From an uncultured Elusimicrobiales bacterium (GTDB lineage Bacteria; Elusimicrobiota; Elusimicrobia; Elusimicrobiales; Elusimicrobiaceae): a stretch of DNA of 33,729 nt. Positions within the stretch are counted from its first letter, which is position 1; each line of letters opens with the position of its first letter. Position numbers and translations under genes: made by a program. The DNA lies in contig CALUVA010000006.1 in NCBI GenBank assembly GCA_944324105.1, positions 1 to 33,729 on the forward strand, written 5' to 3'. The notes under the pieces were generated by a model. It had not been told where the DNA came from. It saw only the letters and a list, made by a program, of their open reading frames with translations, and made no database searches. Below are positions 9,701-31,288 of the stretch, in pieces.

Positions 9701-12700
9701 GCCAAAATGGAGCGGCTGCTGGAAGAAGGCGCGGAATGCTCCGTGCGCAAAAATGTGGTCATCAGCGGTATTGCCGCCGGCGGCCCGGGCAGCTGGGACA
9801 AAGTATTCCGCGAAGGCGTGCTGGACGAAATCCTGCAGGGCCGCAATTTGATTGAGCCCGTCAGCAGCGACTGCCAGCAAAAACAAATTGACAAAAATGT
9901 GGAAGTCGTCATCAAATCCAAAGACGGCAATCACCGCATTGAACATTTAAGCTCCGTAGCGCAGGCCGTCAAACTGGCCGCCAAAGCCGGCAGTTTTGAT
10001 TTGGAAAAAGAATTCGGCCTGCCCGCCAAATGGGTGGCGTCCATGGACCGCTGTTTCCAGCTGGCCATCGCCGCCGGTATTTTGGCGCTCAAAGACGCAG
10101 GCATTCCGCTGGTGTTGTATTATAAACCCACTTCCACGGGCGGCTATCTGCCGGACCGCTGGGGCCTGCCGGAAGATATGATAGACAACACGGGCGTGAT
10201 TTTCACTTCCGCCTATCCTATTACCAACAGCATGATGGGGGAATTTGCCCAAAAGCTGACGGCCCTGTTGGAAAACAAAAACGCCAAAGAACTAACCAAA
10301 TTCTATGAAAAATTTATCAACCAGATTTCCGACCCGGCGCTGAAAGCCGAGCTGAAAGCCTGGTACGACAGCGAAATGGCCAAAGTGCCCGCTCTGCAGT
10401 CGTTTACTTCGCAGTTTATTTTAAAGACCATTATCATTGCCCAGTCGCATTTTGCGCAGTGGATCCGCGCCAAAGGGCCCGCCACTTCCATGAGTGCGGC
10501 GTGCGCCAGCACGGCGCAGGCCATTTCCGTGGCGCATGACTGGATACGCCTGGGCCGTGCCAAACGCGTAATCGTTATCAGCGCAGATGATATTACCAAT
10601 GATTCCATTGCCGAATGGATGCTGACGGCCTTCCTGGCCTCCGGCGCCGCCACGACGGAAGCGGACGTGACCAAAGCCGCCCTGCCTTTTGACCGCCGCC
10701 GCAACGGCATGATTGTGGGCATGGGTGCGGTGTCCTTGGTTGTGGAAGAACAGAGCGAAGTGGAAAAACGCGGTATGAAACCGCTGGCCAAACTGCTGGC
10801 CACGGAAATCCGCAACAGCGGCTTCCACGTTACCCGCCTGGATGTGGGGCATGTGGCGCAGGTGATGAATGAGCTGGTTTCCCATGCCGAAAAAGACTTC
10901 GGTTTAAACCGCTCCGACATCGCCAAACAGCTGGTGTTCATTTCCCATGAAACCTATACGCCCGCGCGCGGCGGTTCGGCCAGTGCCGAGGCGTATGCCT
11001 TAAAATCCACCTTCGGCAAAGACGTCAGCTCCGTTATCGTCAGCAATACCAAAGGCTTTACCGGCCACTCCATGGGTGCGGGGCTGGAGGACGCCATTGC
11101 CGTGCGCTGCCTCAACACGGGCATCGTGCCTCCCATTGCCAATTTTAAGGAAGCCGACCCCGAGCTGGAAGGCATTACCTTGAGCAAAGGCGGCCATTAC
11201 GACTTTAAATACGCGCTGCGTCTGGCGGCGGGTTTCGGCTCGCAGATCGGCATGACGCTGCTGGAGAAAATGTGGAGCGTGGGCGACCCGCGCATTTCCG
11301 ATCCGGCCAAACACGAAGCCTGGCTCAAGCAAATTTCCCACCAGGAAAATCCGGTGCTGGAAGTGGAACACAATACCCTGCGCGTAAAAGACAATTACAA
11401 ACACGGTGTCAAACCCTCGCTGGTCATGGAAGGAGCGCAGGCTTTTGTAGATAAAGTCAACGCCATTCATGCCAAAGCGGCTCCGGCTGCGTCTGTAACG
11501 CCTGCGGCCCAGCCCGCACCCGCCGCGGCCCCGGTGGCTGCTGCTCCGGCGGCTGCGCCGAAAGCGGCTCTGCCGAGCCTGAGTGAAGGCGACGTAACCA
11601 AAGATATATTGGCGATTGTGTCCGAAAAGACGGGTTACCCCGAAGACATGCTGGATCTGGACTTGGATATGGAAGCCGACCTGGGCATTGATACGGTCAA
11701 ACAGGCCGAACTGTTCGCCATCATGCGCGAAAAGTATCAGATTGCCAGACAGGAAGGCGTGCAGCTCAAGGACTATCCGACGATTCGCTCCATTATTAAG
11801 TATGCTATCGCCAATGCGGGCAGTGAAGCGGGTGCCGCCTCTGCAGCTCCAGCCGCCGCGCCTGTAACGCCTGCCGTGGCTCCGGTGGCTGCTGCTCCGG
11901 CGGCTGCGCCGAAAGCGGCTCTGCCGAGCCTGAGTGAAGGCGACGTAACCAAAGATATATTGGCGATTGTGTCCGAAAAGACGGGTTACCCCGAAGACAT
12001 GCTGGATCTGGACTTGGATATGGAAGCCGACCTGGGCATTGATACGGTCAAACAGGCCGAACTGTTCGCCATCATGCGCGAAAAGTATCAGATTGCCAGA
12101 CAGGAAGGCGTGCAGCTCAAGGACTATCCGACGATTCGCTCCATTATTAAGTACGCTATGGCCAATGCCGGCACCGAAGGCCAGGCCGCCGCGGCTCCAG
12201 CCGCCGCACCTGCTCCGGCTGCCGCGCCCGTAACGCCTGCGGCCCAGCCTGCTTCTGCCGCGACCCCCGTACAAACGGCGGCTCCGGTGGCTAAACCTGC
12301 TGCGGCCCTGCCGAACTTGGACGAAGCCAGCGTAACCAAAGATATCCTGTCCATCGTAGCCGAAAAGACGGGTTACCCCGAAGACATGCTGGACTTGGAC
12401 TTGGACATGGAAGCTGACCTGGGTATTGATACGGTCAAACAGGCGGAACTCTTCGCCATTATGCGCGAAAAGTATCAGATTGCCAGACAGGAAGGCGTCC
12501 AGCTGAAAGACTATCCGACGATTCGTTCCATTATTAAATATGCTATGGCTAATGCTGGCACTGAAACAGGTGCCGCCTCTGCGGCTGCCGCTCCTGTAAT
12601 GCCTGCGTCCCAGCCCGCGCCTGTCGCGGCCCCCGTGGCTGCTGCTCCGGCGGCTGCGCCGAAAGTGTCCGGTCCGTTGCCGAGCTTGGACGAGGCCAGC

Positions 12701-15700
12701 GTAACCAAAGACATTACGGCGTTAGTGGCTGAAAAAACGGGTTATCCGGAAGACATGCTGGATCTGGACCTGGACATGGAAGCCGACCTGGGCATTGATA
12801 CGGTCAAACAGGCCGAGCTGTTCGCCATTATGCGCGAAAAGTATCAGATTGCCAGACAGGAAGGCGTCCAGCTGAAAGACTATCCGACGATCCGCTCCAT
12901 TATTAAGTACGCTATGGCCAATGCCGGCACCGAAGGCCAGGCCGCCGCGGCTCCAGCCGCTGCGCCTGCTCCGGCTGCCGCGCCCGTAACGCCTGCGGCC
13001 CAGCCCGCGCCTGCCGCGGCCCCTGTGGCTGCTGCTCCGGCGACTGCGCCGAAAGCGTCCGGCCCGCTGCCGAGTTTGGACGAAGCCTCCGTTACGGCGG
13101 ACATTAAAGCCATTGTGGCAGAAAAGACGGGTTACCCCGAAGACATGCTGGATCTGGACCTGGACATGGAAGCCGACCTGGGCATTGATACGGTCAAACA
13201 GGCCGAGCTGTTCGCCATTATGCGCGAAAAGTATCAGATTGCCAGACAGGAAGGCGTCCAGCTCAAAGACTATCCGACGATCCGCTCCATTATTAAGTAT
13301 GCTATGTCCAATGCCGGCACCGAAGGTCAGGCCGCTGCGGCCCCTGCCGCCGCGCCTGCTCCGGCTGCCGCGCCCGTAACGCCTGCGGCCCAGCCCGCGC
13401 CTGCCGCGGCCCCCGTGCAGACGGCGGTCCCGCAAGTGCAGGAAGAGCCTGCCGCCCCTGCCCTGCCCACCATTGAAGTGGACAAAGTGCAGGACGCCGT
13501 GCCGACCGCCGGAAAAGTGGAAAAGCCTTCTGAAGAAATGCTGACCACCAACCCGACCGCACCGATTAAGCCGCATGAGTCTTTGGCCGAACGGCCCGAG
13601 CGCGAAGGGTACGCCGGCGAACACTGCCATGAGAAAAAACTGCGCAGTGTAACCGTCGTGGCGCAGGCCCCGCTGACCGAGCGCGAAAACCGCCGCCTGG
13701 CCAAGGACCGCACCGTGCTGATCTTTGCTGACAATTCCCAGCTCATTAAAGCCTATCAGGAAGAGTTTAAGGAATTGGGCGTCAAAACGCACGTGTTCAC
13801 CACGCTCAAAACCCGCAGCAAAAACACGACTATCGTAAACTGGGAATCTTACGAAGAAACCGAGGCCGCGCTGAAAGAATACGCTGCCGAAGACCCCAAC
13901 ATTCAGGGTATCGTGTACCTGCTGGGTGCGACGGTCAAGAAATTTGACAAGAAAGTCAGCCCGCACAATGAACTGACCAAATACGTCATGCCGCTGTTTA
14001 TTGCGCTGCGCGTATTTGAAAAAGGTCTGTCCAACCGTGCCGACGCCGACACGTTCTTTGCGGTCAACACCAAGATTGACGGTAACTTCGGTTACACGAC
14101 CAAAGATGAGTTTAACCCCATCTCCGGCGCGCTGACCGGCGGCGTTACCTGCTACCGCAAAGACGTGTACGAACGCACCGGCGCCATTTCCAAGCTCATT
14201 GATTTTGAGCCCACGGCCACGCCCGACGAAATGGCCCGCTACACCATGGACGAAGTGCTCCACGGTGATATGCGCCTGATGATCGGTGCGCGTGAAGGCG
14301 GCCGCAGCACCATCCTGTCCGTGCCCGTGCGTTTGGACCGCAGCGAAAAACGCTTTGACCTGGCCGGCAAGACCATTATCTTCACCGGTTCGGGCCGCGG
14401 CATCGGCGCCATGCTCAGCCAGAAAATCGCCGCGCAGTACCACAGCAAAATCATCGTGCTGGACATCATTGAAATCCAGGAAAAGACCCCGCTGTGGGCG
14501 TCCATGAACGAGGCCGAACTGGCCGCGCTGAAGAAGCAAATCTGGGAGGACCTCAAGGCCGACAAGACCCAAAAGGCCACCCCGGTGCTGCTGGAGCGCG
14601 CTTTCGGCCGCGTGAAAGATTCCATCACGCTTTATAACAACCTGCAGAAACTGCGCGAGCTGGGCAGCGAAGTGGAATATTACCACTGCGACGTGATGAA
14701 CAGCTCGATGGTTAAAGAAGTCTGCACGAAGATTAAAGCCAAAAACGGCCGCGTGGACGGAATGATCCACTTTGCCGGACTGGAACGCTCCAAACTCATC
14801 TATGACAAAGACCCCGCGGAATATTACCGCATCTTTGACGTAAAAGCCACGAGTTTTGCCAGCTTCCTGGCCAACAATATCGTGCGCGACGACGGCTTCT
14901 TCGCTTTCGCTTCGTCCATTGCCGGCAAATACGGTAACCTGGGCCAGAGCGATTACGCGTCGGCCAACGACTATTTGGCCAAGTCCGCCTTCTCGCTGAC
15001 CAACCAGGGCTACCGCGCCATCTCCATCGCCATGAGCGCCTACAAGAATGTGGGCATGGGCGTGCGCGCCGGCGTGGAAACCTTCCTCAAATCCAACGGC
15101 GTGGACTTTGTGGATCCCGAAGACGGTATGCAGATATTCCTGGACGAAATCGTGTACGGCGACGTGCCCGAAATCGTGCTGACCGGTTCTCTGGGCCGCC
15201 TGGACTGGGATCACCAGCACCGTTTGGAAATGGATGAAATCGTACCCCGGGGCGCGCAAAACGCGCCCAAGGGCGGCGATAAAGGCGGCAAAGGCGGTTC
15301 TTCTTCCGCCGCGCCCAAAACCGCCGCGGTGGACGTGGCCCTGCCCGACCCGTCGCAGGCCAATCACTTTTTAGGCAAAGTGGCTTCTTTGGAAAAAGGC
15401 AAAGAAATCCACGCCGAAAAAGAATTTAACCTGCAGTCCGATCCGTACCTGGCCGACCACGCCATTGAAGGCACGCCGTATGTGCCGGGCGTGATGGGCA
15501 TTGAAACGTTTATGGAAACGGCGACGGCGCTTTCCGGTTCTGTGCCGCAGGGCTTAAAAGACGTGCATTTTTACCTGCCCATTAAACTGCTGCGCAACCG
15601 ACCCCAGGCCGTACGCGTCATCGGCGCGGAAGCCGGCGGGGATATTTCCATGGAAATAGAGTCCGACTTTATTAACAGCAAAGGCGTTAAAATGGGCAAT

Positions 15701-16210
15701 ACCCGCCGCCACTTTACGGCCAAGGCCCTGCAGAGCGGTTTCGTGTCCACCTGGAATGAGGTTAAAGACCACATTCATTTGGACGTGAACGCCGCCCCGC
15801 AGATTTCCAAAGAGGAAATCTACAAAAAGTATTTCCACGGGCCCAGCTTCCAGGTGCTCGGCGGTATTTTGCGCGCGGACAAAGACAGCTCTTTGGCCGT
15901 CTACAACACCACCCCGCAGCCGCAGTGGAAAGACGGGCAGAAAGTGTTGCTGGCCAACCCGATGCTCATTGAAGCCGCCTTCCAGTGCTGCGGTTTCCGC
16001 GATATGGCCATTGACAACAAAATGACCCTGCCCGACGGCATTAAAGAAGTGGCCGTATTCAAACGCCAGACGCCTCCGCAGAAGCTGTACCTCTACGGGC
16101 GTTTTAAAGGTTTGACCGCCGACGGCAAAACCCTGCACGACGCGTATGTGTTTGACGAAAAAGGCGACGTGTGGGTGGAATTCCACGGCTACCAGGCCAT
16201 CGGCCAGTAA
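6758..16210 (+). CDS. PUFA-synthase-like type I megasynthase: KS-AT-KS-ACP(x5)-KR-DH
   Basis: A 3150-residue cytoplasmic multidomain synthase that should build an acyl or polyketide chain on its own carrier domains. Domains by residue: KS1 6-465 (Cys216, His350, His389, complete). AT 612-905 (GHSLGEY with Ser714; HAFHS with His819, the form usual for malonyl specificity). KS2 997-1505, divergent but with Cys1249, His1397 and His1437 aligned to the triad. Five ACPs 1608-2183 joined by Ala/Pro-rich linkers. KR structural plus catalytic parts 2293-2815 (TGSGRGIG from Thr2543; Ser2720, Tyr2733, Asn2737). Hotdog DH 2868-3145 (HxxxGxxxxP from His2901). No enoyl reductase domain is present. All five ACPs have Thr in place of the expected phosphopantetheine Ser. 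It resembles PfaA-type PUFA synthases but inserts a second KS before the ACPs. The CAGGAG Shine-Dalgarno fixes the start. Product unknown. Confidence 0.93.
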   Translation: MNNKTKEPIAIVGIGAIMPGALNKDEFWQNIQTGKYCITEIPKSYWDYKLFYSPDHKAEDKLYSKIGGFIPEGFKFNSIKYRIPPQIAKQMDTVQHLAIETTRMALEDSGYDKKEFNRDRCAVIVGNSMGGMKNEMSNTRLNRPFLYEILKETPTYKSMPADAEQKLLDEMDEGVRQKFTPITEDSMPGELANVIAGRLANVFDVHGTNFTVDAACATSLAAVDQAVNGLREGNFDMAIVGGVDQMMSPSAYIKFCKIGALSEKGSCPFDAKADGFVMAEGAGTVILKRLSDAVKDGDKIYAVIRAVGASSDGKGKGITAPNPKGQKIAVQKAFEQVEYTPGDVGLVEAHGTSTRVGDAVELNALYEIFGPYAKPGTIGLGSVKSQIGHAKAAAGIASLIKTSLALYNKVLPPSVNFETPNPTVDWATSPFRVITKLEPWNTDKVRRANVSAFGFGGTNFHVALEEMNDGLLKKTEDNRVCAAKISNPTSAVQEQQTMNANEYSLLVPGEKIQSDVLTFSADTKQDLFNELGKAVLAIKYDPTYLPSISYKNHIQKPRKFAVSINVENPEKLKEKIEYFIKIAGGQDVWAQESLYLKMKGIYPFTPSENKPKVCFMFPGQGSQYVDMMKDLASKYKVVMDTFMEADQHLIKIIGQNLTDTLWSKPGETKEQLAAREAAIKKTEMTQPAMLTADVAMMRLLSSFGLKPDVVMGHSLGEYAAAVAAGIFDFENGLKAVCTRGKVMSEIKVEDNGKMASIAATAEAVEPHLKRISGYVAVANKNCPTQTVIAGASKSVDDAIKMFTDMGIQAVQIPVSHAFHSEIVRPAMPQYRAFLDTLTFNSPKLPITTNVTAEFYPNDPEKIKDLMVTQISHSVEWIKQLKTTYDSGVRLFVECGPKRVLSALAASTLSDKKDIKVLASNHPKKGGIVEFNDLFANLISSGIAIDWKGTDIFGDNSTYNPAFVKWVDASATPTEKCEGNMPAKMERLLEEGAECSVRKNVVISGIAAGGPGSWDKVFREGVLDEILQGRNLIEPVSSDCQQKQIDKNVEVVIKSKDGNHRIEHLSSVAQAVKLAAKAGSFDLEKEFGLPAKWVASMDRCFQLAIAAGILALKDAGIPLVLYYKPTSTGGYLPDRWGLPEDMIDNTGVIFTSAYPITNSMMGEFAQKLTALLENKNAKELTKFYEKFINQISDPALKAELKAWYDSEMAKVPALQSFTSQFILKTIIIAQSHFAQWIRAKGPATSMSAACASTAQAISVAHDWIRLGRAKRVIVISADDITNDSIAEWMLTAFLASGAATTEADVTKAALPFDRRRNGMIVGMGAVSLVVEEQSEVEKRGMKPLAKLLATEIRNSGFHVTRLDVGHVAQVMNELVSHAEKDFGLNRSDIAKQLVFISHETYTPARGGSASAEAYALKSTFGKDVSSVIVSNTKGFTGHSMGAGLEDAIAVRCLNTGIVPPIANFKEADPELEGITLSKGGHYDFKYALRLAAGFGSQIGMTLLEKMWSVGDPRISDPAKHEAWLKQISHQENPVLEVEHNTLRVKDNYKHGVKPSLVMEGAQAFVDKVNAIHAKAAPAASVTPAAQPAPAAAPVAAAPAAAPKAALPSLSEGDVTKDILAIVSEKTGYPEDMLDLDLDMEADLGIDTVKQAELFAIMREKYQIARQEGVQLKDYPTIRSIIKYAIANAGSEAGAASAAPAAAPVTPAVAPVAAAPAAAPKAALPSLSEGDVTKDILAIVSEKTGYPEDMLDLDLDMEADLGIDTVKQAELFAIMREKYQIARQEGVQLKDYPTIRSIIKYAMANAGTEGQAAAAPAAAPAPAAAPVTPAAQPASAATPVQTAAPVAKPAAALPNLDEASVTKDILSIVAEKTGYPEDMLDLDLDMEADLGIDTVKQAELFAIMREKYQIARQEGVQLKDYPTIRSIIKYAMANAGTETGAASAAAAPVMPASQPAPVAAPVAAAPAAAPKVSGPLPSLDEASVTKDITALVAEKTGYPEDMLDLDLDMEADLGIDTVKQAELFAIMREKYQIARQEGVQLKDYPTIRSIIKYAMANAGTEGQAAAAPAAAPAPAAAPVTPAAQPAPAAAPVAAAPATAPKASGPLPSLDEASVTADIKAIVAEKTGYPEDMLDLDLDMEADLGIDTVKQAELFAIMREKYQIARQEGVQLKDYPTIRSIIKYAMSNAGTEGQAAAAPAAAPAPAAAPVTPAAQPAPAAAPVQTAVPQVQEEPAAPALPTIEVDKVQDAVPTAGKVEKPSEEMLTTNPTAPIKPHESLAERPEREGYAGEHCHEKKLRSVTVVAQAPLTERENRRLAKDRTVLIFADNSQLIKAYQEEFKELGVKTHVFTTLKTRSKNTTIVNWESYEETEAALKEYAAEDPNIQGIVYLLGATVKKFDKKVSPHNELTKYVMPLFIALRVFEKGLSNRADADTFFAVNTKIDGNFGYTTKDEFNPISGALTGGVTCYRKDVYERTGAISKLIDFEPTATPDEMARYTMDEVLHGDMRLMIGAREGGRSTILSVPVRLDRSEKRFDLAGKTIIFTGSGRGIGAMLSQKIAAQYHSKIIVLDIIEIQEKTPLWASMNEAELAALKKQIWEDLKADKTQKATPVLLERAFGRVKDSITLYNNLQKLRELGSEVEYYHCDVMNSSMVKEVCTKIKAKNGRVDGMIHFAGLERSKLIYDKDPAEYYRIFDVKATSFASFLANNIVRDDGFFAFASSIAGKYGNLGQSDYASANDYLAKSAFSLTNQGYRAISIAMSAYKNVGMGVRAGVETFLKSNGVDFVDPEDGMQIFLDEIVYGDVPEIVLTGSLGRLDWDHQHRLEMDEIVPRGAQNAPKGGDKGGKGGSSSAAPKTAAVDVALPDPSQANHFLGKVASLEKGKEIHAEKEFNLQSDPYLADHAIEGTPYVPGVMGIETFMETATALSGSVPQGLKDVHFYLPIKLLRNRPQAVRVIGAEAGGDISMEIESDFINSKGVKMGNTRRHFTAKALQSGFVSTWNEVKDHIHLDVNAAPQISKEEIYKKYFHGPSFQVLGGILRADKDSSLAVYNTTPQPQWKDGQKVLLANPMLIEAAFQCCGFRDMAIDNKMTLPDGIKEVAVFKRQTPPQKLYLYGRFKGLTADGKTLHDAYVFDEKGDVWVEFHGYQAIGQ
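11531..12153 (+). repeat. exact 272-bp direct repeat covering ACP1 and ACP2
   Basis: Bases 11531-11802 and 11882-12153 appear identical on reading, offset by 351 bp (117 codons), including silent positions and part of the Ala/Pro linker. ACP3 to ACP5 differ at scattered third positions. This is the mark of a very recent in-frame duplication or conversion, and a likely site of copy-number change or assembly error. Confidence 0.85.
11579..13306 (+). repeat. five tandem ACP-coding repeats inside the megasynthase
   Basis: Units lie at 11579-11812, 11930-12163, 12320-12553, 12689-12916 and 13076-13306. Each codes for about 77 residues with the same core (GYPEDMLDLDLDMEADLGID then Thr-Val-Lys-Gln-Ala). 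The Thr codons fall at residues 1646, 1763, 1892, 2015 and 2145. Linkers of about 40-55 residues are almost pure Ala/Pro/Val, as in multi-ACP PUFA synthases, where carrier number raises yield. The units are much more alike than needed for function, which points to recent duplication or gene conversion. Confidence 0.95.
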
Positions 16211-25283: not shown

Positions 25284-25314
25284 AAAAACCCCCGGTTAAA
25301 AACCGGGGGTTTTT
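25284..25314. terminator. bidirectional rho-independent terminator
   Basis: A perfect 14-bp stem (25284-25297 with 25301-25314) with a 3-nt loop, flanked by A's on the left and T's on the right, so it works in both directions. It separates the convergent nitroreductase gene and the first envelope-paralog gene. Confidence 0.92.
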
Positions 25315-25327
25315 GTTTAATTTGTTT

Positions 25328-26587
25328 TTATCTGGCCAAATTAATAGTTCCCCTTGTCCCGGCTTTCGGAGCTGCGGTCGTAATTCCTTTCAGGCCGGAC
25401 TTTAAGAAAGACGCTTCAGAAGGGGACAGCAAACTCATCTGATGCAGTGCTTCTGCGCCCTGGATGCAAATCTTGCGTAGTTCCTCGTCTTTTTCCATGG
25501 CGGCCAGCTGTTTCGGCGTGGCATTGAGGAACAATCGGAAGTTGGTGTTTATGCGATCGGCCTGCTTCTGCGCATGTACGCTGTGGGCCGAAGCACCTAA
25601 AGCCACCAATAAGGCGATTGCCGGCAGATTTTTGGAGTGGAAAATATGACGGCAAATGGCGACCATGCGTTCAAAGAGTGGCATATTTTTTTCTACACTC
25701 CAACGCATCATATGGCGCATATATTCGCTGGCACTGATTTTGCCTCCTCCGATGGAAACAGACATGCCCTCATCAATAAAATGCATAAATTCTTTGCGTT
25801 GTGCTTCCGTAACGGCCTGCAGCCAAGGTTCTTTTAACAACTGGGCACGTAAGGCGGAACGCTGGGAAGTCGGCAGATTTTTATCGAACAGTTTTTCATA
25901 GACATTCAATTCTTTTTCCCAGTCATAGGAATAGCTAAACATGGTCGTATAATGTCCTTTTTTCTGGTTGAAGCGGACCTGTAACTGCTGCAAATCTTTT
26001 TTTAGTTTCACGATTCTGTTATGCATGACGCGAATGGTCTGAGATTTGTTTGCGGAAATGGAACCGGTTTTTTGGAGCTGTTGGGTCAAAGAGGCAATTT
26101 CTTTTTCTAGTTGGGCAATACGGGCCTGCTGCCAGCCTCTGTCGGTGTTAACCAAGCTGTTGTACTGCTTTTTCCATTTGGAGGCTCTAGAGTTGGCAAT
26201 GCCCAGTTGTTCCTGCAAAGCCCGGTTTTGCTCTTCCAATTGCTGAACCAGCGAATATTGCTGTTGGCGTTCCTGTTTGGCAATTTGCTGATATTTTCTG
26301 CTTGTAACCCGGGCATTATGCAACTGGGTTTCAAAATTTCCCGTTAATTCTTTGATTTGTCTCTTGTGCATGATATGCTGTACAATGCCCAAACCCACTG
26401 CGGTGCCGCCTAAACTCAATAGGGCAATTCCTTCGTTGGAAATCCACGGTGCATGTTGGATGTCTTTTTTGGCGCGTTGTTGATATTGGGCCAAAGTTTG
26501 GGGCTCGGCTGGGACATTTTTCGCAAACAGGGCTTGCTGTCCCAGCAGAGAAAAAGAGAGCAATAAAACAAGAAGTTTACGTATCAT
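25328..26587 (-). CDS. envelope protein with coiled coil, paralog 1 of a three-gene family
   Basis: 419 residues, no family recognised. A signal peptide (about 1-22) is followed by a Gln-rich spacer, a hydrophobic segment (about 52-73) and a long coiled coil (about 74-215). Then come a helical domain with a Gly/Ser loop, a second hydrophobic segment (321-340) ending in an AxA-like site, and a C-terminal domain with the motif LFL..(T)..QL..........C. The same order and motif recur in the next two minus-strand genes. I chose the ATG at 26585-26587, with a GAGG Shine-Dalgarno and the signal peptide at the N-terminus; the longer frame to 26659 is not protein-like. The second hydrophobic segment could be a cleavage site that frees the last 80 residues. 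Own promoter and terminator. Confidence 0.8.
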   Translation of the reverse strand: MIRKLLVLLLSFSLLGQQALFAKNVPAEPQTLAQYQQRAKKDIQHAPWISNEGIALLSLGGTAVGLGIVQHIMHKRQIKELTGNFETQLHNARVTSRKYQQIAKQERQQQYSLVQQLEEQNRALQEQLGIANSRASKWKKQYNSLVNTDRGWQQARIAQLEKEIASLTQQLQKTGSISANKSQTIRVMHNRIVKLKKDLQQLQVRFNQKKGHYTTMFSYSYDWEKELNVYEKLFDKNLPTSQRSALRAQLLKEPWLQAVTEAQRKEFMHFIDEGMSVSIGGGKISASEYMRHMMRWSVEKNMPLFERMVAICRHIFHSKNLPAIALLVALGASAHSVHAQKQADRINTNFRLFLNATPKQLAAMEKDEELRKICIQGAEALHQMSLLSPSEASFLKSGLKGITTAAPKAGTRGTINLAR

Positions 26588-26630
26588 ATTTAATACCTCG
26601 GATAGAATGATCGCATTTATGGATAATCTT

Positions 26631-26659
26631 ATTCTAGAAGTTACAAAAGAGGGGAACAA
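26631..26659 (-). promoter_or_regulatory. promoter of envelope paralog 1
   Basis: On the minus strand TTGTTC (26654-26659), an exact 17-bp spacer and TAGAAT (26631-26636). The -35 is preceded by CCC, as in the promoters of the two sister genes. Confidence 0.65.
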
Positions 26660-26699
26660 GGGTCCTAGGGCCCAAAGTCTTTCTAGGCCTTTTTTTCAT

Positions 26700-27686
26700 T
26701 CAGCGTGCCCGTAAGGGGCGGCGTGGGTATGAAGAATATGCCGGTCGTGTCAACAGGGATTTTTCTTCTTCAGTTAAAGGAGTGGCGGCGAGCAGTTCCA
26801 CGGCCTGCACAATTTGTCTGCAGTAGGATAAGGCCTGAGGATAACGAGCCAGTCGGTGTAGCTGTTCATCCGTCGCATCTAAAAACAGGGCAGGATTTGC
26901 CGCCAGGCGTTCCATGGTCTTATCTGAGAAGGAAGATGAAACCAGTAAATCAGTAACAGCCAGTATACCTGTTACAACCAGCATACGTTTGGCAATGACA
27001 AGGTACAAAGAAGTGCTAGAAGATTGAAAGGCTTTTTGTTCCAAAAATTTTAATGCATTTTGCCTTCCGGATTTCTGTTTACGGAGTACGGCTTCATCTA
27101 ATACTTCTATTAACCCCTGCTGCTCAGATAACGGCAAGCGGCTGATGCGCGGGCGGTAATTTTCCATAATATATTTACTGAGAAATGTTTTGGGTTTTAT
27201 CTCTTTGACTGGTTCGTCAAACAGGGATGGTTGTGCTGGACGAGGTGCCAGCGGCTGGGAAGGTTTATCCAGCCAGGATAAGTCTTTTTGTCCATGACTC
27301 GCGGTGGGAGGCAGGTCAAATAAATCGTCAATTAAACCCCAGCTGCGGCGTTTGGCAAACAAATGCCGTGCCGGACTACGCTCGGCCAGTCCTTTTTCCG
27401 GGAACAAACGGGAGTGGCTTTTGGCGGATGATACAGTTTGCCACATACGCTGCTGTGCCAGTTCCGTTAGGGCAGCCATGGCTGCTGTGCCTGCAGAAAG
27501 AACCAATAGACGACGTATATATACTGCTGTTTCAGGGGATTTTTGCAAAATTTGCTGTGCACGGTTGCGCAATGCCTGCAATTCGGCACTGCGTTGTTGA
27601 AAAGACATAGCCCTGGCTTCGGAAATCGGAGTACAAAGCAACAGTACTGCCAGGCAAAAACATAAAAAACGGTGAATGGAAAGCAT
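26700..27686 (-). CDS. envelope protein, paralog 2 of a three-gene family
   Basis: 328 residues, no family recognised. An N-terminal signal peptide (about 1-26) is followed by a short helical part, a hydrophobic segment (about 57-75), then a Pro/Ser-rich low-complexity linker in place of the long coiled coil of paralog 1. A helical domain follows, then a second hydrophobic segment (about 227-250), and the C-terminal domain with NPALFLDA..EQL and a conserved Cys in the helix after it (motif near 264-290). No Shine-Dalgarno; a TACAAT hexamer lies 5 nt before the ATG with a 17-bp-spaced TTGCAG, which suggests a leaderless message. The C-terminus ends in a basic, Arg/Pro-rich tail. Confidence 0.78.
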   Translation of the reverse strand: MLSIHRFLCFCLAVLLLCTPISEARAMSFQQRSAELQALRNRAQQILQKSPETAVYIRRLLVLSAGTAAMAALTELAQQRMWQTVSSAKSHSRLFPEKGLAERSPARHLFAKRRSWGLIDDLFDLPPTASHGQKDLSWLDKPSQPLAPRPAQPSLFDEPVKEIKPKTFLSKYIMENYRPRISRLPLSEQQGLIEVLDEAVLRKQKSGRQNALKFLEQKAFQSSSTSLYLVIAKRMLVVTGILAVTDLLVSSSFSDKTMERLAANPALFLDATDEQLHRLARYPQALSYCRQIVQAVELLAATPLTEEEKSLLTRPAYSSYPRRPLRAR

Positions 27687-27691
27687 ATTTT

Positions 27692-27720
27692 ATTGTAAGT
27701 AAATCCTTTATCTCCTGCAA
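27692..27720 (-). promoter_or_regulatory. promoter of envelope paralog 2, leaderless layout
   Basis: TTGCAG (27715-27720), an exact 17-bp spacer and TACAAT (27692-27697) on the minus strand, only 5 nt before the ATG. A small GGCCTATAGGCC palindrome lies just upstream, around 27738-27750. Confidence 0.6.
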
Positions 27721-27760
27721 GGGTTATTGGACCTGGCCGGCCTATAGGCCTTTGAATCTT

Positions 27761-27785
27761 AAAAAGCCCCGTCTTAAGACGGGGC
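27761..27785 (-). terminator. rho-independent terminator of envelope paralog 3
   Basis: A 10-bp self-complementary stem (27766-27785, GCCCCGTCTT with its complement). On the minus strand it is followed by five T's. It lies 5 nt past the stop of paralog 3. Because the palindrome has no unpaired loop, the actual hairpin must open a few central pairs. Confidence 0.85.
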
Positions 27786-27790
27786 CAAAA

Positions 27791-28750
27791 TTAACGAACC
27801 AATTGTTTGCGAAGATTTTGCCGAAGCGCCTTTTTTTGAGCTGCTGCTTGTTTGGCCGCATACAATGTAAAGGTTTGGGCTTCTTCATCAGTGAGTTTTA
27901 GACTGTATGCTTGATCTATAACTTCTGCCACTTTGCGGCATAAAGCATTTGCACGGGGATTTTTTTCCCAAGCTTTCAGTTGATCAGCGTCGGCTTGCAG
28001 AAATAAAGCCGGATTTTGTTCCAAACGACTCAATCGTGTCTGGGCTTGGGCATCTGCTGCCGGAAAGGCTAAGGTAAACAACAAAGCCGTGACGGCAAAA
28101 CCTTTAATATATTTCTCCACAGCGATAAAAGCTTGTTTGCGGGTAATGTGAGAAGCCTGCCACGTCAGACGGTTTAAATTCAGCAGGGCTTGGGCCGGTT
28201 TCTGTTTAGCCAACAGATCTACTTCACGTAAAAGGGCTTTTATTTCTTCTTCTGGCATGTTATAGAACAAAGAAGTGTTTTCCGTAAGCAGGCGTTTGGA
28301 TAAATCCGTTTTTGCCGAAGGCATAAATTTTTGAACCAGAGACATTTTGGGCGGTTTGGGGGTAGTGGATTTATTTTTTATCTGCAGGATTTGTTCGGCG
28401 GTCTTGGCACGGTTTTGAGCCTGTTCCAATTTCCAAGCAAGTGCTTCATTACGTGCATACAGACGGGAAGAATAGTGTTGATAGTCTTTGATTGCCTGAG
28501 TTAATTTTTGGGTTTCGGCACGCAGTTGTTTATTTTGGCGTGCCAAACTGAATTGTTTGATAAGTAAAGCCCCGCCTCCGATACCTATTGCCGTTAACGG
28601 CAGTAAATAGCGTTTCATCCATGGAGTCTGAGCAACTTGTTGTTTGGCTTTGGTTTGCACCTGTTGTAACGAAGGAAGCGACTGAGCAAAAGAAGAAGAA
28701 CACAAACTGACGGCTAATAGGCAAGCAATCACGCGGGAAGCTGGTTTCAT
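27791..28750 (-). CDS. envelope protein with coiled coil, paralog 3 of a three-gene family
   Basis: 319 residues, no family recognised. A signal peptide (about 1-22, cleavage after SFA) is followed by a Gln-rich spacer, a hydrophobic segment (about 45-66), a coiled coil (about 67-125) and a basic linker. A helical domain follows, then a second hydrophobic segment (217-236) ending in AADAQA, and the C-terminal domain with NPALFLQA..DQL and the conserved Cys. A GGAGG Shine-Dalgarno before the ATG at 28748-28750 fixes the start; the frame open to 28855 is spurious. It is the closest of the three to paralog 2 in the C-terminal motif and to paralog 1 in overall layout. Own promoter and terminator. 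Confidence 0.8.
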   Translation of the reverse strand: MKPASRVIACLLAVSLCSSSFAQSLPSLQQVQTKAKQQVAQTPWMKRYLLPLTAIGIGGGALLIKQFSLARQNKQLRAETQKLTQAIKDYQHYSSRLYARNEALAWKLEQAQNRAKTAEQILQIKNKSTTPKPPKMSLVQKFMPSAKTDLSKRLLTENTSLFYNMPEEEIKALLREVDLLAKQKPAQALLNLNRLTWQASHITRKQAFIAVEKYIKGFAVTALLFTLAFPAADAQAQTRLSRLEQNPALFLQADADQLKAWEKNPRANALCRKVAEVIDQAYSLKLTDEEAQTFTLYAAKQAAAQKKALRQNLRKQLVR

Positions 28751-28783
28751 AAAACCTCCAAGAGTAAGAGAACTTCTTCTTTT

Positions 28784-28813
28784 ATTATAAGCACAAACGG
28801 AACAAAAAAACAA
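28784..28813 (-). promoter_or_regulatory. promoter of envelope paralog 3
   Basis: On the minus strand TTGTTT (28808-28813), an 18-bp spacer and TATAAT (28784-28789). It is again preceded by CCC at the -35. Confidence 0.6.
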
Positions 28814-28936
28814 GGGCGAAATAATTTCTCCGTCGTAATAAACCCTATATTTCACTGCATAAATTCATTCATGTTTTTGGCGGATAAATCTTGCTGTAAG
28901 GTTGGTATTTTTAGGGAAAGGAATATAAAATTTGAA

Positions 28937-28962
28937 ATAAAAAAGAGCCCTTGCGGGCTCTT
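28937..28962 (-). terminator. rho-independent terminator after tRNA-Gln
   Basis: An 8-bp stem AAGAGCCC/GGGCTCTT (28943-28950 with 28955-28962) with a 4-nt loop, followed by a T-run on the minus strand, 4 nt past the tRNA CCA end. It closes the ispE-spoVG-tRNA transcript. Confidence 0.9.
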
Positions 28963-28966
28963 AGAA

Positions 28967-29040
28967 TGGTTTCCGGACTAGGACTCGAACCTAGAATGAC
29001 TGGACCAAAACCAGTAGTGATACCATTTCACCATCCGGAA
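28967..29040 (-). tRNA. tRNA-Gln (anticodon UUG), CCA encoded
   Basis: On the minus strand it is a full cloverleaf: acceptor TTCCGGA/TCCGGAA, a D-arm with GTGA/TCAC, an anticodon loop TTTTGGT (anticodon TTG) and a T-arm CTAGG/CCTAG around TTCGAGT. The discriminator is A, and CCA (28967-28969) is encoded, unlike the tRNA-Arg in this window. The 5' end is only 7 nt past the spoVG stop, so the tRNA is most simply released from the ispE-spoVG transcript. Confidence 0.95.
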
Positions 29041-29047
29041 TTTAAAT

Positions 29048-29368
29048 TTAGGGTGCAGGGTTTTCTTCCTGCGTTTGTCCTGCCTCTGTTGAAGTATGCC
29101 CAGCCTGTGGATGCTTGGCCCGTTCTTCTTCATAAGCTTTTAGGACATTTTCCTCTAAATAGCGGCGGAACTCCTGGTTAATAGGGTGTACCATGTCTTT
29201 ATGGCTGCCGTCAGGCAGTTTGCGCGAAGGCATACACAAAAACACCCCTTTTGTTCCTTCCACTACTTTCATGTTGCGTACAACAAACGCATCGTCAAAT
29301 GTTACACTCGCAAATGCTTTGAGGCGCTCTTCCCCCATTAAGTGAATACGAATTTCAGTTATTTTCAT
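29048..29368 (-). CDS. spoVG: SpoVG family regulatory protein
   Basis: Small nucleic-acid-binding regulator of 106 residues. SpoVG in Bacillus affects septation, and in Borrelia and Staphylococcus it binds DNA or RNA. The conserved core is clear: MKITEIRI at the start, the LKAFASVTFDD strand, FVVRNMKVVEG and the basic MPSRK...KDMVHPI surface. The last about 20 residues are a low-complexity acidic/polar tail. It overlaps the ispE stop by 14 nt, with a GGAGGG Shine-Dalgarno inside ispE, so the two are coupled. The ispE/spoVG proximity also occurs in Firmicutes. Confidence 0.95.
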   Translation of the reverse strand: MKITEIRIHLMGEERLKAFASVTFDDAFVVRNMKVVEGTKGVFLCMPSRKLPDGSHKDMVHPINQEFRRYLEENVLKAYEEERAKHPQAGHTSTEAGQTQEENPAP

Positions 29369-30257
29369 CCTGGCTCCCTCCGAAACGTACGGTGAATACT
29401 TTTCGTCCCTTTTGTTTTATTCTCCCTGCCAAATCTTCGGCCTGGTCCCGGTCGGGGGTTAAAGCGAAAACGGTGGAGCCGGAACCGGACATCAACGGAC
29501 TTGCGCCCAAAGCGAGAAAGTCTTCTTTTACGTTGCGTACGGAACTAACAAACGGCAATACCGCTTCCTCCAGTCTGTTAAACAACAAAGGTTGCCAGTC
29601 TGCCGGAGGAAGACCCTGGCGTATGTACTCTATTAATTTATCTAAATTGGAAAGGCTTGTCAAGACGGTCTGACGCGTCGGTAGACGCAGGCGCCCGAAT
29701 ACCCCCTTGGTGGGCACCGGTGTGTTCGGGTATACCAATACAGCCCAAGGAAGCAAACCAGGTGCAGAAAGCGGGCTCAGTTTGTCTCCAATTCCTTCCC
29801 CTTTTAAAAAACTGTCGGAATATAAGAACAGCGGCACGTCCGCTCCCAGACGTGCGGCTTCTGGAAGCAGTTCCAGCGGATTTTTTTCAAATAGCTGACA
29901 CAGCCCTCGCAGTACGGTGCCTGCGTCGGAGGAGCCCCCTCCCAAGCCGGCGCCAAAAGGGATATTTTTTTCCAAACGGATATGTACGCGCAAAGTCAAG
30001 CCAAAATGTGCCGCAAAAACCCGTACAGCACGCAAAGCCAAATTGTCATCGCCACAACTAAGACCTTCTGCTAAAGGCCCCTGCAAATCCAGCCAAAAGT
30101 CTTCGTTGTCCGAAGTTTCCGCGTCTAATTCTATATGGTCGGCCAAAGACACTTTGGCAAATAGGGTAGATAACTCATGGTAACCGTCTGATCTTTTGCC
30201 AGTAACTTCTAAAAATAAGTTAATTTTGGCCGGGGCCTGCAGTGTTATGTGAGCCAT
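29355..30257 (-). CDS. ispE: 4-diphosphocytidyl-2-C-methyl-D-erythritol kinase
   Basis: Phosphorylates CDP-methylerythritol in the MEP isoprenoid pathway; cytoplasmic GHMP kinase of 300 residues, normal length. Lys11 in the APAKINL motif, the glycine-rich ATP loop GLGGGSSDAG (105-114 region) and the catalytic Asp140 (LGADVP) are present. I prefer the ATG at 30255-30257 (MAHITL), because a TACAAT hexamer lies 7 nt upstream with no Shine-Dalgarno, which fits a leaderless start. An in-frame ATG 9 nt further upstream (30266) would add only three residues and overlaps that hexamer. It heads the ispE-spoVG-tRNA-Gln transcript. Confidence 0.95.
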   Translation of the reverse strand: MAHITLQAPAKINLFLEVTGKRSDGYHELSTLFAKVSLADHIELDAETSDNEDFWLDLQGPLAEGLSCGDDNLALRAVRVFAAHFGLTLRVHIRLEKNIPFGAGLGGGSSDAGTVLRGLCQLFEKNPLELLPEAARLGADVPLFLYSDSFLKGEGIGDKLSPLSAPGLLPWAVLVYPNTPVPTKGVFGRLRLPTRQTVLTSLSNLDKLIEYIRQGLPPADWQPLLFNRLEEAVLPFVSSVRNVKEDFLALGASPLMSGSGSTVFALTPDRDQAEDLAGRIKQKGRKVFTVRFGGSQDENN

Positions 30258-30264
30258 ATATATC

Positions 30265-30270
30265 ATTGTA
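30265..30270 (-). promoter_or_regulatory. candidate -10 element for ispE, leaderless layout
   Basis: TACAAT on the minus strand, 7 nt before the chosen ATG. The -35 region is not close to consensus. The divergent surface-protein gene starts about 100 nt away, so the region 30271-30373 also holds that gene's promoter; I see AT-rich -10-like stretches but no clear pair. Confidence 0.4.
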
Positions 30271-30373
30271 TCTTTTTATGGTCGGAGAGAAAAAGTTTTT
30301 TCGTGTATTGTGCAATAAATATATATCTAAGTGTGTATTAAAAATGAGCAGAAGTATGAAATGGAGGGGAAAT

Positions 30374-31288
30374 ATGAGGATATTTTTTGGGATAGGGGCA
30401 GTGTTGCTTTTTTCGTACCCGGTATATGCGGAAAACAATATTCGAATGGTTACTTATTTCCCGGTTCCGTATGTATCTTATAATGATTTAGAAGTTGTGG
30501 GCACCTGTGATGCCGGGTTGATGGATGTGTGTAATTTGGAGATAGGGAACGAATTGAAAGTTTTTACAAAGAATAACGATAGCAGAGATTTAAATACCGG
30601 CAGTTTGATTGTATAAACCGGTAAATTGGAATTAAACTCCGATTTGTCTGAATCGGTAGTAGATGGAGTCAGTATATTTGCCGGGGAAACCTCTTCTGAA
30701 GAAGGCGTACTGGAATTTGCCCATAATCTGGAAGTAGCGAATATAGATGGAGAGGAAATTCAAAGCGCACAAGCTCAGAATATAGCTTATCTGAAAAATA
30801 TGACATTGTTCGGGGAGGAGTTCCCTTACTGTGATGCGTCGGGTAATGAAATCAGCTGGCAGGAGCTGACTATAAACGGGGAAAACGGCGTATTTCTGGT
30901 ATGCGGAACGGGGGAGAGCTATGAAGTTTCCTGTGAAGATGAGCCTGAACAGGAAAAATGCTGTTCCGGATGCGAAACTTGGGACGGCAGCAGCTGTGTA
31001 CAGAAAACTTGTTCCAGCGGATATGAACTTAATGAATCTACCTGTCAGTGTGAGGCGACAGAAGATGACGACGAATCTGTTACCGCTGGCGTATGGGAGA
31101 AAGGGCTGTCTGTTTCTGGCGGCTGGAGATGCGATAGCAGCTGCAATATTATTTTCGACCCGGAAGACGCCAGTTATAACATTCCGCAAGGTTCTTGTTC
31201 TCCGATAGGAAAGGTCCGCTATGTGGTAAATGACGTAATGGATTCCGTTGCTTGCAGTAGTCTGGGGTCGGGAATTGGCAAGTTGTGA
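30374..31288 (+). pseudogene. secreted surface-type protein gene interrupted by an in-frame TAA
   Basis: A GGAGGGG Shine-Dalgarno precedes ATG 30374. The product starts with a signal peptide (cleavage after VYA, about residue 18), then a conserved-looking segment with MVTYFPVPY and YNDLEVVGTCDAG, suggestive of a repeated beta-structured surface or pilus-associated protein. A TAA at 30614-30616 stops it after 80 residues. The same frame resumes at once (Thr-Gly-Lys-Leu) and runs 224 codons more, through a beta-type region, a Cys-rich EGF-like stretch with spaced Cys pairs, and a C-terminal Cys-containing domain, to TGA 31286-31288. The second part has no start with a Shine-Dalgarno (only a TTG at 30626). 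The frame is kept across the stop, so this looks like a recent nonsense change, sequencing error or read-through. Family not recognised. Confidence 0.7.

What the first reader, a model, noticed from the sequence alone, without database searches (positions are those of the whole stretch)
25328..28750. Three adjacent paralogous envelope proteins of an unrecognised family
All three have a signal peptide, a Gln-rich spacer, a hydrophobic segment, a variable middle (coiled coil or Pro-rich linker), a helical domain, a second hydrophobic segment and a C-terminal domain with the shared pattern LFL-x-A-x3-QL followed by a conserved Cys and a Leu-x-(Pro/Leu)-(Thr/Ser)-x-(Glu)-(Glu/Ala) end. In paralogs 1 and 3 the second hydrophobic segment ends in an AxA-like site, as if an internal signal peptide could release the last about 80 residues. 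They are monocistronic or separately promoted, with similar CCCTTG-type -35 boxes. The function is unknown.
Basis: partly seen in the sequence, partly recalled or inferred. Interest (0 to 1): 0.66.

Follow-up and report, generated by a model that had tools for sequence, protein, structure and literature searches.

The report
Elusimicrobia envelope protein family with shared promoter
Three neighbouring genes of a bird-gut bacterium belong to a previously undescribed, fast-changing family of exported membrane proteins that share a probable internal cutting site, an unusual fixed last tripeptide and a dedicated on-switch in their DNA that also sits in front of many other exported proteins of this bacterial family.

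Summary
The three genes (window 25328-26587, 26700-27686, 27791-28750, minus strand) are true paralogs: C-terminal alignments exceed all 2000 shuffles, z 7.5-14.7. No Pfam, NCBIfam, PHROG or PDB match is convincing. The genome is a Candidatus Avelusimicrobium (Elusimicrobiaceae). The family occurs in 18 of 341 Elusimicrobiota genomes: one 17-species clade of that genus (2-7 copies each) plus Elusimicrobium minutum. The trio sits at one vertical locus, empty in non-carriers, and evolves fast and as a mosaic.

(1) The AxA-like end of the second hydrophobic segment continues as [AV]xA-Q and is strongly enriched there; the middle paralog lacks it. (2) 48/64 members end in [ASNTG]-[RYH], typically L-A-R, against 14/327 other proteins. 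(3) The "CCCTTG boxes" belong to a 17-bp palindrome fused to a promoter, confined to Elusimicrobiaceae (295 sites against 5 control), upstream of exported proteins (33/36 against 18% background), including about half of this family.

Best model: two-pass inner-membrane proteins of an exported-protein regulon, with a diversified cytoplasmic middle and a periplasmic C-terminal domain that signal peptidase I probably releases. Cleavage, regulator and function are untested.

The parts
25328..26587 (-). Paralog 1 (P1), 419 aa: signal peptide (about aa 1-22), Gln-rich segment, TM1 (about aa 53-70), coiled coil, helical region, TM2 (about aa 321-334), C-terminal helical domain, end -INLAR
   Evidence: ORF and translation; homologs aligned in A6; AlphaFold2 model all-helical, low confidence, mean pLDDT 57
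25331..25570 (-). P1 C-terminal domain (aa 340-419) that would be freed by cleavage at VHA|Q
   Evidence: [AV]xA-Q directly after TM2; enrichment
26631..26673 (-). P1 promoter module: palindrome GGGCCCTAGGACCCTTG, 20-nt spacer, TAGAAT
   Evidence: score 22.8 on a PWM trained on non-family sites
26700..27686 (-). Paralog 2 (P2), 328 aa: signal peptide, TM1, Pro-rich middle with LFxxP and DLSWLDxP motifs, helical domain, TM2 without AxA, C-terminal domain, end -LRAR
   Evidence: orthologs in A7; P2 clade support 100/98
27692..27734 (-). P2 promoter module: AGGTCCAATAACCCTTG, 20-nt spacer, TACAAT; the -10 box ends 5 nt before the ATG, so the transcript may be nearly leaderless
   Evidence: score 23.8
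27791..28750 (-). Paralog 3 (P3), 319 aa: signal peptide, Gln/Lys-rich segment, TM1, short coiled coil, helical domain, TM2, C-terminal domain, end -KQLVR
   Evidence: AlphaFold2 mean pLDDT 73, all helical
27794..28042 (-). P3 C-terminal domain (aa 237-319) that would be freed by cleavage at AQA|Q (ADA|Q two residues earlier is also possible)
28784..28816 (-). P3 promoter: CCCTTG-N21-TATAAT, without the upstream palindrome
   Evidence: palindrome score below threshold
27753..27787 (-). Inverted repeat GCCCCGTC-TTAA-GACGGGGC followed by TTTTT between P3 and P2: terminator-like, consistent with separate transcription (approximate ends)
   Evidence: read directly from the sequence; not listed by the automatic scan
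25284..25314 (.). Terminator-like stem of 14 pairs downstream of P1, shared with the convergent nitroreductase-like gene

Best explanation
The three genes are vertically inherited members of a new, multi-copy family of exported, two-pass inner-membrane proteins of Elusimicrobiaceae. Shown here: homology, taxonomic range, vertical locus, shared promoter/operator, [AV]xA-Q after TM2 in about half of members, fixed C-terminal tripeptide. Inferred: after Sec export and removal of the N-terminal signal peptide, TM1 stops transfer, so the variable coiled-coil or Pro-rich middle stays in the cytoplasm. TM2 (short, preceded by positive charges) acts as an internal signal sequence that carries the C-terminal helical domain into the periplasm. 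In P1- and P3-type members signal peptidase I then cuts at [AV]xA|Q and frees or exposes this domain, which docks to a common partner through its free end -L-[AS]-[RYH]; P2-type members stay anchored. Transcription of much of the family is set by a palindrome GGNC-N4-GNCC centred about 42 bp upstream of the start, overlapping the -35 box of a sigma-70-like promoter, the position of a class II activator site. The same element drives a wider exported-protein regulon that includes secreted peptidases and ankyrin-repeat proteins.
For: Family. Orthologous P1, P2 and P3 clades at a locus between the tRNA/spoVG/ispE side and the nitroreductase/rpoD side; empty in the non-carriers examined where spoVG and the nitroreductase gene are still neighbours (L153-L155, L160). 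Topology: TM2 is preceded by mean net charge +2.7 and followed by -0.3 (12 aa each); median uncharged run 14 aa. Cleavage site: [AV]xAQ in 30/64 windows before the invariant Arg against 15/1122 other windows of the same proteins; Gln is also common at position +1 of ordinary signal peptides here (19/96 against 4.3% background). C-terminus: [ASNTG][RYH] end in 48/64 against 14/327, after unalignable tails. Promoter: 24 of 27 strict element-plus-minus-10 sites in 559 kb lie upstream of family genes. A PWM trained only on 40 non-family sites finds it upstream of 34/67 family, 7/60 other signal-peptide and 4/341 other genes. The -10 box is at the fixed spacing in 25/28 family and 35/40 non-family sites, expected 4.4 and 6.4. 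Downstream ORFs have signal peptides in 33/36 against 77/424. Element counts: 295 against 5 control in 34 Elusimicrobiaceae genomes, 31 against 21 in 86 other Elusimicrobiota (sums).
Against: No experiment shows cleavage, topology or regulation. The AxA site is missing in P2-type and in several dispersed members, so cleavage is not a family-wide function. The E. minutum homologs lack both the AxA-Q site and the LAR-type end. Counts are over related sequences and are not independent events; the signal-peptide and gene calls are simple rules. P3 itself lacks the palindrome. AlphaFold2 confidence is low to moderate and no fold match was found. No domain gives a biochemical activity.
Confidence: 0.42

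Rival explanations
1. Same family, topology and regulon, but no internal cleavage: the proteins are permanent two-pass inner-membrane scaffolds, with both conserved ends in the periplasm and the coiled coil in the cytoplasm. [AV]xAQ is only a structural cap of TM2.
For: P2-type and many dispersed members lack the site; both ends are conserved while the middle varies, as expected of a scaffold.
Against: The site is enriched about 65-fold (odds ratio) at exactly this place, with the same Gln +1 preference as ordinary signal peptides; the hydrophobic run is short, as in signal peptides.
Confidence: 0.33
2. The proteins are surface-exposed or secreted helical antigens or receptors whose variation is driven by phages, host or neighbours; the hydrophobic segments are buried in an assembly rather than in the inner membrane.
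For: Very fast, mosaic evolution: against Ca. A. excrementipullorum P1 is 91% identical in DNA (dS 0.27) while P2 and P3 are 56-59% (synonymous sites saturated) and flanking genes are 77-92%. Against G042 rpoD third positions are 92% identical but P1 41%. Membership of an exported-protein regulon.
Against: TM1 and TM2 are hydrophobic enough to be inserted by Sec; no adhesin or antigen fold found; the conserved parts are the ends, not an anchor plus a variable tip.
Confidence: 0.18
3. On the regulation only: the palindrome is a repressor site or an architectural site rather than an activator site, so the regulon is shut off, not switched on, by its factor.
For: It overlaps the -35 box, which also suits a repressor.
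Against: The centre at about -42 is the classical class II activator position, and the -35 hexamers are poor beyond TTG, as is usual for activator-dependent promoters (established knowledge of CRP/FNR class II promoters).
Confidence: 0.3

Closest known systems
Staphylococcus aureus LtaS, a polytopic membrane protein cut by signal peptidase I (SpsB)
   Same: Signal peptidase cleavage between the transmembrane part and an extracytoplasmic domain (between Ala217 and Ser218; PMC11898559) is the precedent for the proposed internal cut.
   Different: LtaS is an enzyme with several transmembrane segments and no sequence relation; cleavage in the present family is only predicted.
Bacteroidetes Q-rule (Gln after signal peptidase I sites, then pyroglutamate)
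   Same: Gln at +1 is frequent in this lineage, both after ordinary signal peptides (19/96) and after TM2.
   Different: The paper reports the rule as Bacteroidetes-specific (abstract) and does not mention Elusimicrobia (PMC5837995); a glutaminyl cyclase of family PF05096 was not found above cut-off in 10 genomes.
Class II activator-dependent sigma-70 promoters (CRP/FNR type)
   Same: Palindrome centred about -42, directly upstream of the -35 TTG with a 17-18 nt spacer to TAnAAT.
   Different: Half-sites GGNC-N4-GNCC do not match CRP or FNR sites; no regulator was identified.
Polymorphic toxin and contact-dependent systems
   Same: Multi-copy, fast-evolving exported proteins.
   Different: Here the C-terminus is conserved and the middle varies, the opposite of polymorphic toxins; no toxin or immunity domain found.

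Membership tests
Any curated protein family (Pfam, NCBIfam, PHROGs) | Match above the curated cut-off | tested here: not met
   nothing above cut-off; weak hits are mostly to the coiled coil of P1
Signal-peptidase-I-processed internal signal sequence (LtaS-like) | Short hydrophobic segment with positive N-flank and AxA-type site a few residues after it | tested here: met
   P1 and P3 and about half of the family; P2 not
Signal-peptidase-I-processed internal signal sequence (LtaS-like) | Demonstrated cleavage in the cell | not testable with these tools
   no proteomics available
Bacteroidetes Q-rule pathway | Gln in most +1 positions and a glutaminyl cyclase | tested here: not met
   Gln at +1 enriched but in a minority (19/96); PF05096 absent above cut-off; the second, unrelated class of cyclase was not searched
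Class II activator regulon | Palindrome at about -41.5 of a sigma-70-like promoter, recurrent upstream of functionally related genes | tested here: met
Class II activator regulon | Regulator identified and binding shown | not tested
   no candidate regulator sought
Polymorphic toxin systems | Variable C-terminal toxin domain with adjacent immunity gene | tested here: not met
   C-terminus conserved, middle variable; neighbours are housekeeping genes
Mobile or viral gene family | Presence in viral contigs or mobile context | tested here: not met
   no confirmed match in 2.9 million viral contigs; constant chromosomal locus

The most novel reading that the evidence does not exclude
Elusimicrobiaceae use a dedicated, lineage-specific activator and operator to switch on an exported-protein programme. 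Within it, a multi-copy family makes two-step precursors: signal peptidase I cuts each protein twice, leaving a diversified membrane-anchored cytoplasmic part and releasing a small helical domain that is recognised by its fixed C-terminal L-[AS]-[RYH] end. This would be a new kind of paired inside/outside envelope system.
Probability: 0.15. Interest if true: 0.82.

Novelty: new variant of a known kind. Interest (0 to 1): 0.62.

Why it matters
Elusimicrobiota of animal guts are almost unstudied and mostly uncultured. This gives a defined protein family with a testable processing site and C-terminal signal, and a lineage-wide promoter/operator that lists exported proteins probably switched on together. 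Because E. minutum is in culture and carries both homologs and element, the main predictions can be tested there. A fixed C-terminal tripeptide behind hypervariable tails points to an undescribed recognition partner in the envelope.

Tried and rejected
Structure route: AlphaFold2 models of P1 (pLDDT 57) and P3 (73), searched against the PDB, gave no match with E below 0.1; low-ranking hits such as MIC60 or chemoreceptors are generic helical noise and were discarded.

N-terminal profile: an HMM of the signal peptide + TM1 region found no convincing family members lacking the C-terminal domain, only signal-peptide or coiled-coil proteins such as an EnvC-like protein next to an FtsX-like gene.

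Covariation of the palindrome arms (hairpin idea): rejected by inspecting the listed sites, where position 4 and position 11 vary independently, so a protein operator is more likely than a hairpin.

Glutaminyl cyclase: not found. Viral origin: no confirmed match.

Generic sigma-70 promoter scan: no excess over shuffles, because the -35 boxes match little beyond TTG; the specific pattern was needed.

C-terminal LAR as a regulon-wide tag: non-family regulon proteins mostly lack it.

Literature: no paper on this family, motif or regulon found in the held library.
Full report
Setting. The window is contig 6 of a 1.32 Mb metagenome-assembled genome, 81% complete, 125 contigs. Its closest named relative carrying the same locus is Candidatus Avelusimicrobium excrementipullorum from chicken gut (L140; genus description in PMC8035907). 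A second carrier has a single contig of 1,643,562 bases, which I recognise as the size of the E. minutum Pei191 chromosome; that identification is from memory.

The observation. The ORFs, signal peptides, two hydrophobic segments and LFL-x-A-x3-QL motifs are as described. The similarity is well above chance: C-terminal segments score z = 7.5 to 14.7 against 2000 shuffles each, with none reaching the score. N-terminal regions of P1 and P3 score 9.0, while the middle of P1 is unrelated to the others. BLASTP agrees.

No known family. Pfam, NCBIfam and PHROGs give only coiled-coil noise for P1 and nothing convincing for P2 and P3. Fifty-eight C-terminal domains scanned one by one against Pfam give no recurrent family. 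PDB sequence and fold searches give no convincing match; the AlphaFold2 models are all-helical, mean pLDDT 57 (P1) and 73 (P3).

Range and copy number. A profile of 25 C-terminal domains (A3), then of 58 (A4), finds the family in 18 of 90 Elusimicrobiaceae genomes. Over 341 Elusimicrobiota genomes the same 18 remain, plus two matches with E > 0.003 that I regard as chance. Seventeen are Avelusimicrobium genomes with 2-7 copies; the other is the E. minutum-sized genome, with two clear members. These two already scored 2e-13 and 5e-11 with A3, which did not contain them. A third, more diverged E. minutum protein of the same layout (L225) was noticed by eye. Ranking the genus by IspE identity shows that the carriers are the clade nearest the window (62-79%); only G013 and G059 in that range lack the family.

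Locus. P1, P2 and P3 each form an orthologous group (support 100/98 for P2, 93/84 for P3, 95/87 for the P1 group). The trio, or part of it, lies between spoVG/ispE and nitroreductase/rpoD in most carriers examined. In non-carriers where these genes are still neighbours, the same gap holds no ORF of the family (L153-L155, L160). The family is therefore chromosomal and mainly vertical, not mobile; viral contigs gave no relative.

Mosaic evolution. Between the window and Ca. A. excrementipullorum, P1 is 91% identical in DNA with dS 0.27. P2 and P3 are 56-59% identical with synonymous sites saturated, while ispE and spoVG have dS 1.0-1.2 and nitroreductase/rpoD 0.6-0.8. Third-codon identity falls from about 86% in P1 to about 40% in P2 and P3. 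Against G042 the neighbouring rpoD and transporter are 92% identical at third positions but P1 only 41%. Recombination appears to have replaced alleles in this region, as in loci under diversifying pressure. The cause of that pressure is not known.

Topology and the internal site. TM2 has a median uncharged run of 14 residues, a positive N-flank (+2.7) and a near-neutral C-flank, which places the C-terminal domain outside. In 30 of 64 members [AV]xAQ lies within 16 residues before the invariant Arg, against 15 of 1122 other 16-residue windows of the same proteins. Gln also follows 19 of 96 ordinary signal peptides in these genomes against a 4.3% background. The site is present in P1- and P3-type members and absent in P2-type and several dispersed ones. 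Signal peptidase cleavage of a polytopic protein has precedent in S. aureus LtaS (PMC11898559). I rate actual cleavage in P1/P3 at about 0.5.

The C-terminal tripeptide. The last residue is R, Y or H in 54 of 64 family proteins against 28 of 327 others; [ASNTG] plus [RYH] closes 48 of 64 against 14 of 327. The preceding 20-30 residues are unalignable. A fixed free end behind a variable tail suggests recognition of the carboxy-terminus by a partner; that is inference. The two E. minutum proteins lack it.

Promoter and regulon. All three genes have CCCTTG-N20/21-TAnnAT upstream. In relatives this is preceded by RGGHCYWWD, giving the 17-bp element RGGHCYWWDDRCCCTTG with the palindrome GGNC-N4-GNCC. 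The strict element with a -10 box occurs 27 times in 559 kb, 24 of them upstream of family genes, including an E. minutum homolog. Genome-wide it occurs 3-23 times in every Elusimicrobiaceae genome sampled (295 sites against 5 for the reversed control pattern in 34 genomes) and is near background elsewhere in the phylum (31 against 21 in 86 genomes); these sums are mine. Downstream of 40 non-family sites (loci L210-L249), 33 of 36 ORFs of 60 aa or more carry a signal peptide, against 77 of 424 background genes. They include an M20-family peptidase, an M10-like metalloprotease (just below the Pfam cut-off) and ankyrin-repeat proteins. A weight matrix trained on these non-family sites scores 12 bits or more upstream of 34 of 67 family genes, 7 of 60 other signal-peptide genes and 4 of 341 others. 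The -10 box sits at 20-21 nt from CCCTTG in 25 of 28 family and 32 of 40 non-family sites; within 18-22 nt the counts are 25 and 35, against 4.4 and 6.4 expected. The palindrome centre is thus near -42, the class II activator position. P3 keeps only the CCCTTG and -10 boxes.

Model and limits. I propose two-pass inner-membrane proteins of an exported-protein regulon, with a diversified cytoplasmic middle and a periplasmic C-terminal domain that is probably released in P1/P3-type members and read by its C-terminal end. Homology, range, locus, promoter and motif enrichment are shown here; membrane topology, cleavage, partner, regulator and biological role are inferred. Statistical counts are over related sequences and should not be read as independent events; signal peptides and genes were called by simple rules, and most genomes are draft MAGs.

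Noticed in passing
L210-L249 (G000, G046, G090, G055, G022, G016); A 17-bp palindrome-plus-promoter element, RGGHCYWWDDRCCCTTG-N20/21-TAnnAT, marks an exported-protein regulon across Elusimicrobiaceae, including genomes without the present family.
   Followed up: partly
L210:656-817, L240:560-718, L245:528-677, L248:2772-2933: The same element precedes a conserved 50-54 aa protein without signal peptide (consensus LRFLLALGGKKVVVMQ...LHVYSD...VSVERIS); function unknown.
   Followed up: no
window 26700-27686 and its orthologs in L144, L145, L147, L148: The Pro-rich middle of P2-type proteins carries repeated LFxxP, DLSWLDxP and SLF motifs; some orthologs read QLSLF, which I recall as the sliding-clamp binding consensus, perhaps by chance.
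   Followed up: no
L024 (G008:C60) and L027 (G016:C2): A dispersed family member appears to differ by a single residue over 381 aa between two species whose trio proteins are about 50-63% identical: recent transfer or cross-binning.
   Followed up: no
window 30242-31288 (+): A signal-peptide protein ORF is interrupted by an in-frame stop at 30614-30616, while the A. excrementipullorum copy (L071:5427-6509) is open: decayed gene or assembly error.
   Followed up: no
window 6758-16210 (+): A 3150-aa multidomain polyketide/fatty-acid synthase-like protein with five near-identical acyl-carrier-like repeats separated by Ala/Pro linkers; a secondary-lipid paper that mentions E. minutum is in the library (PMC3098273).
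   Followed up: no
window 25328-29368 compared with L071 and G042; The chromosome around the trio is a mosaic of segments with very different synonymous divergence, suggesting frequent homologous recombination between Avelusimicrobium species.
   Followed up: partly
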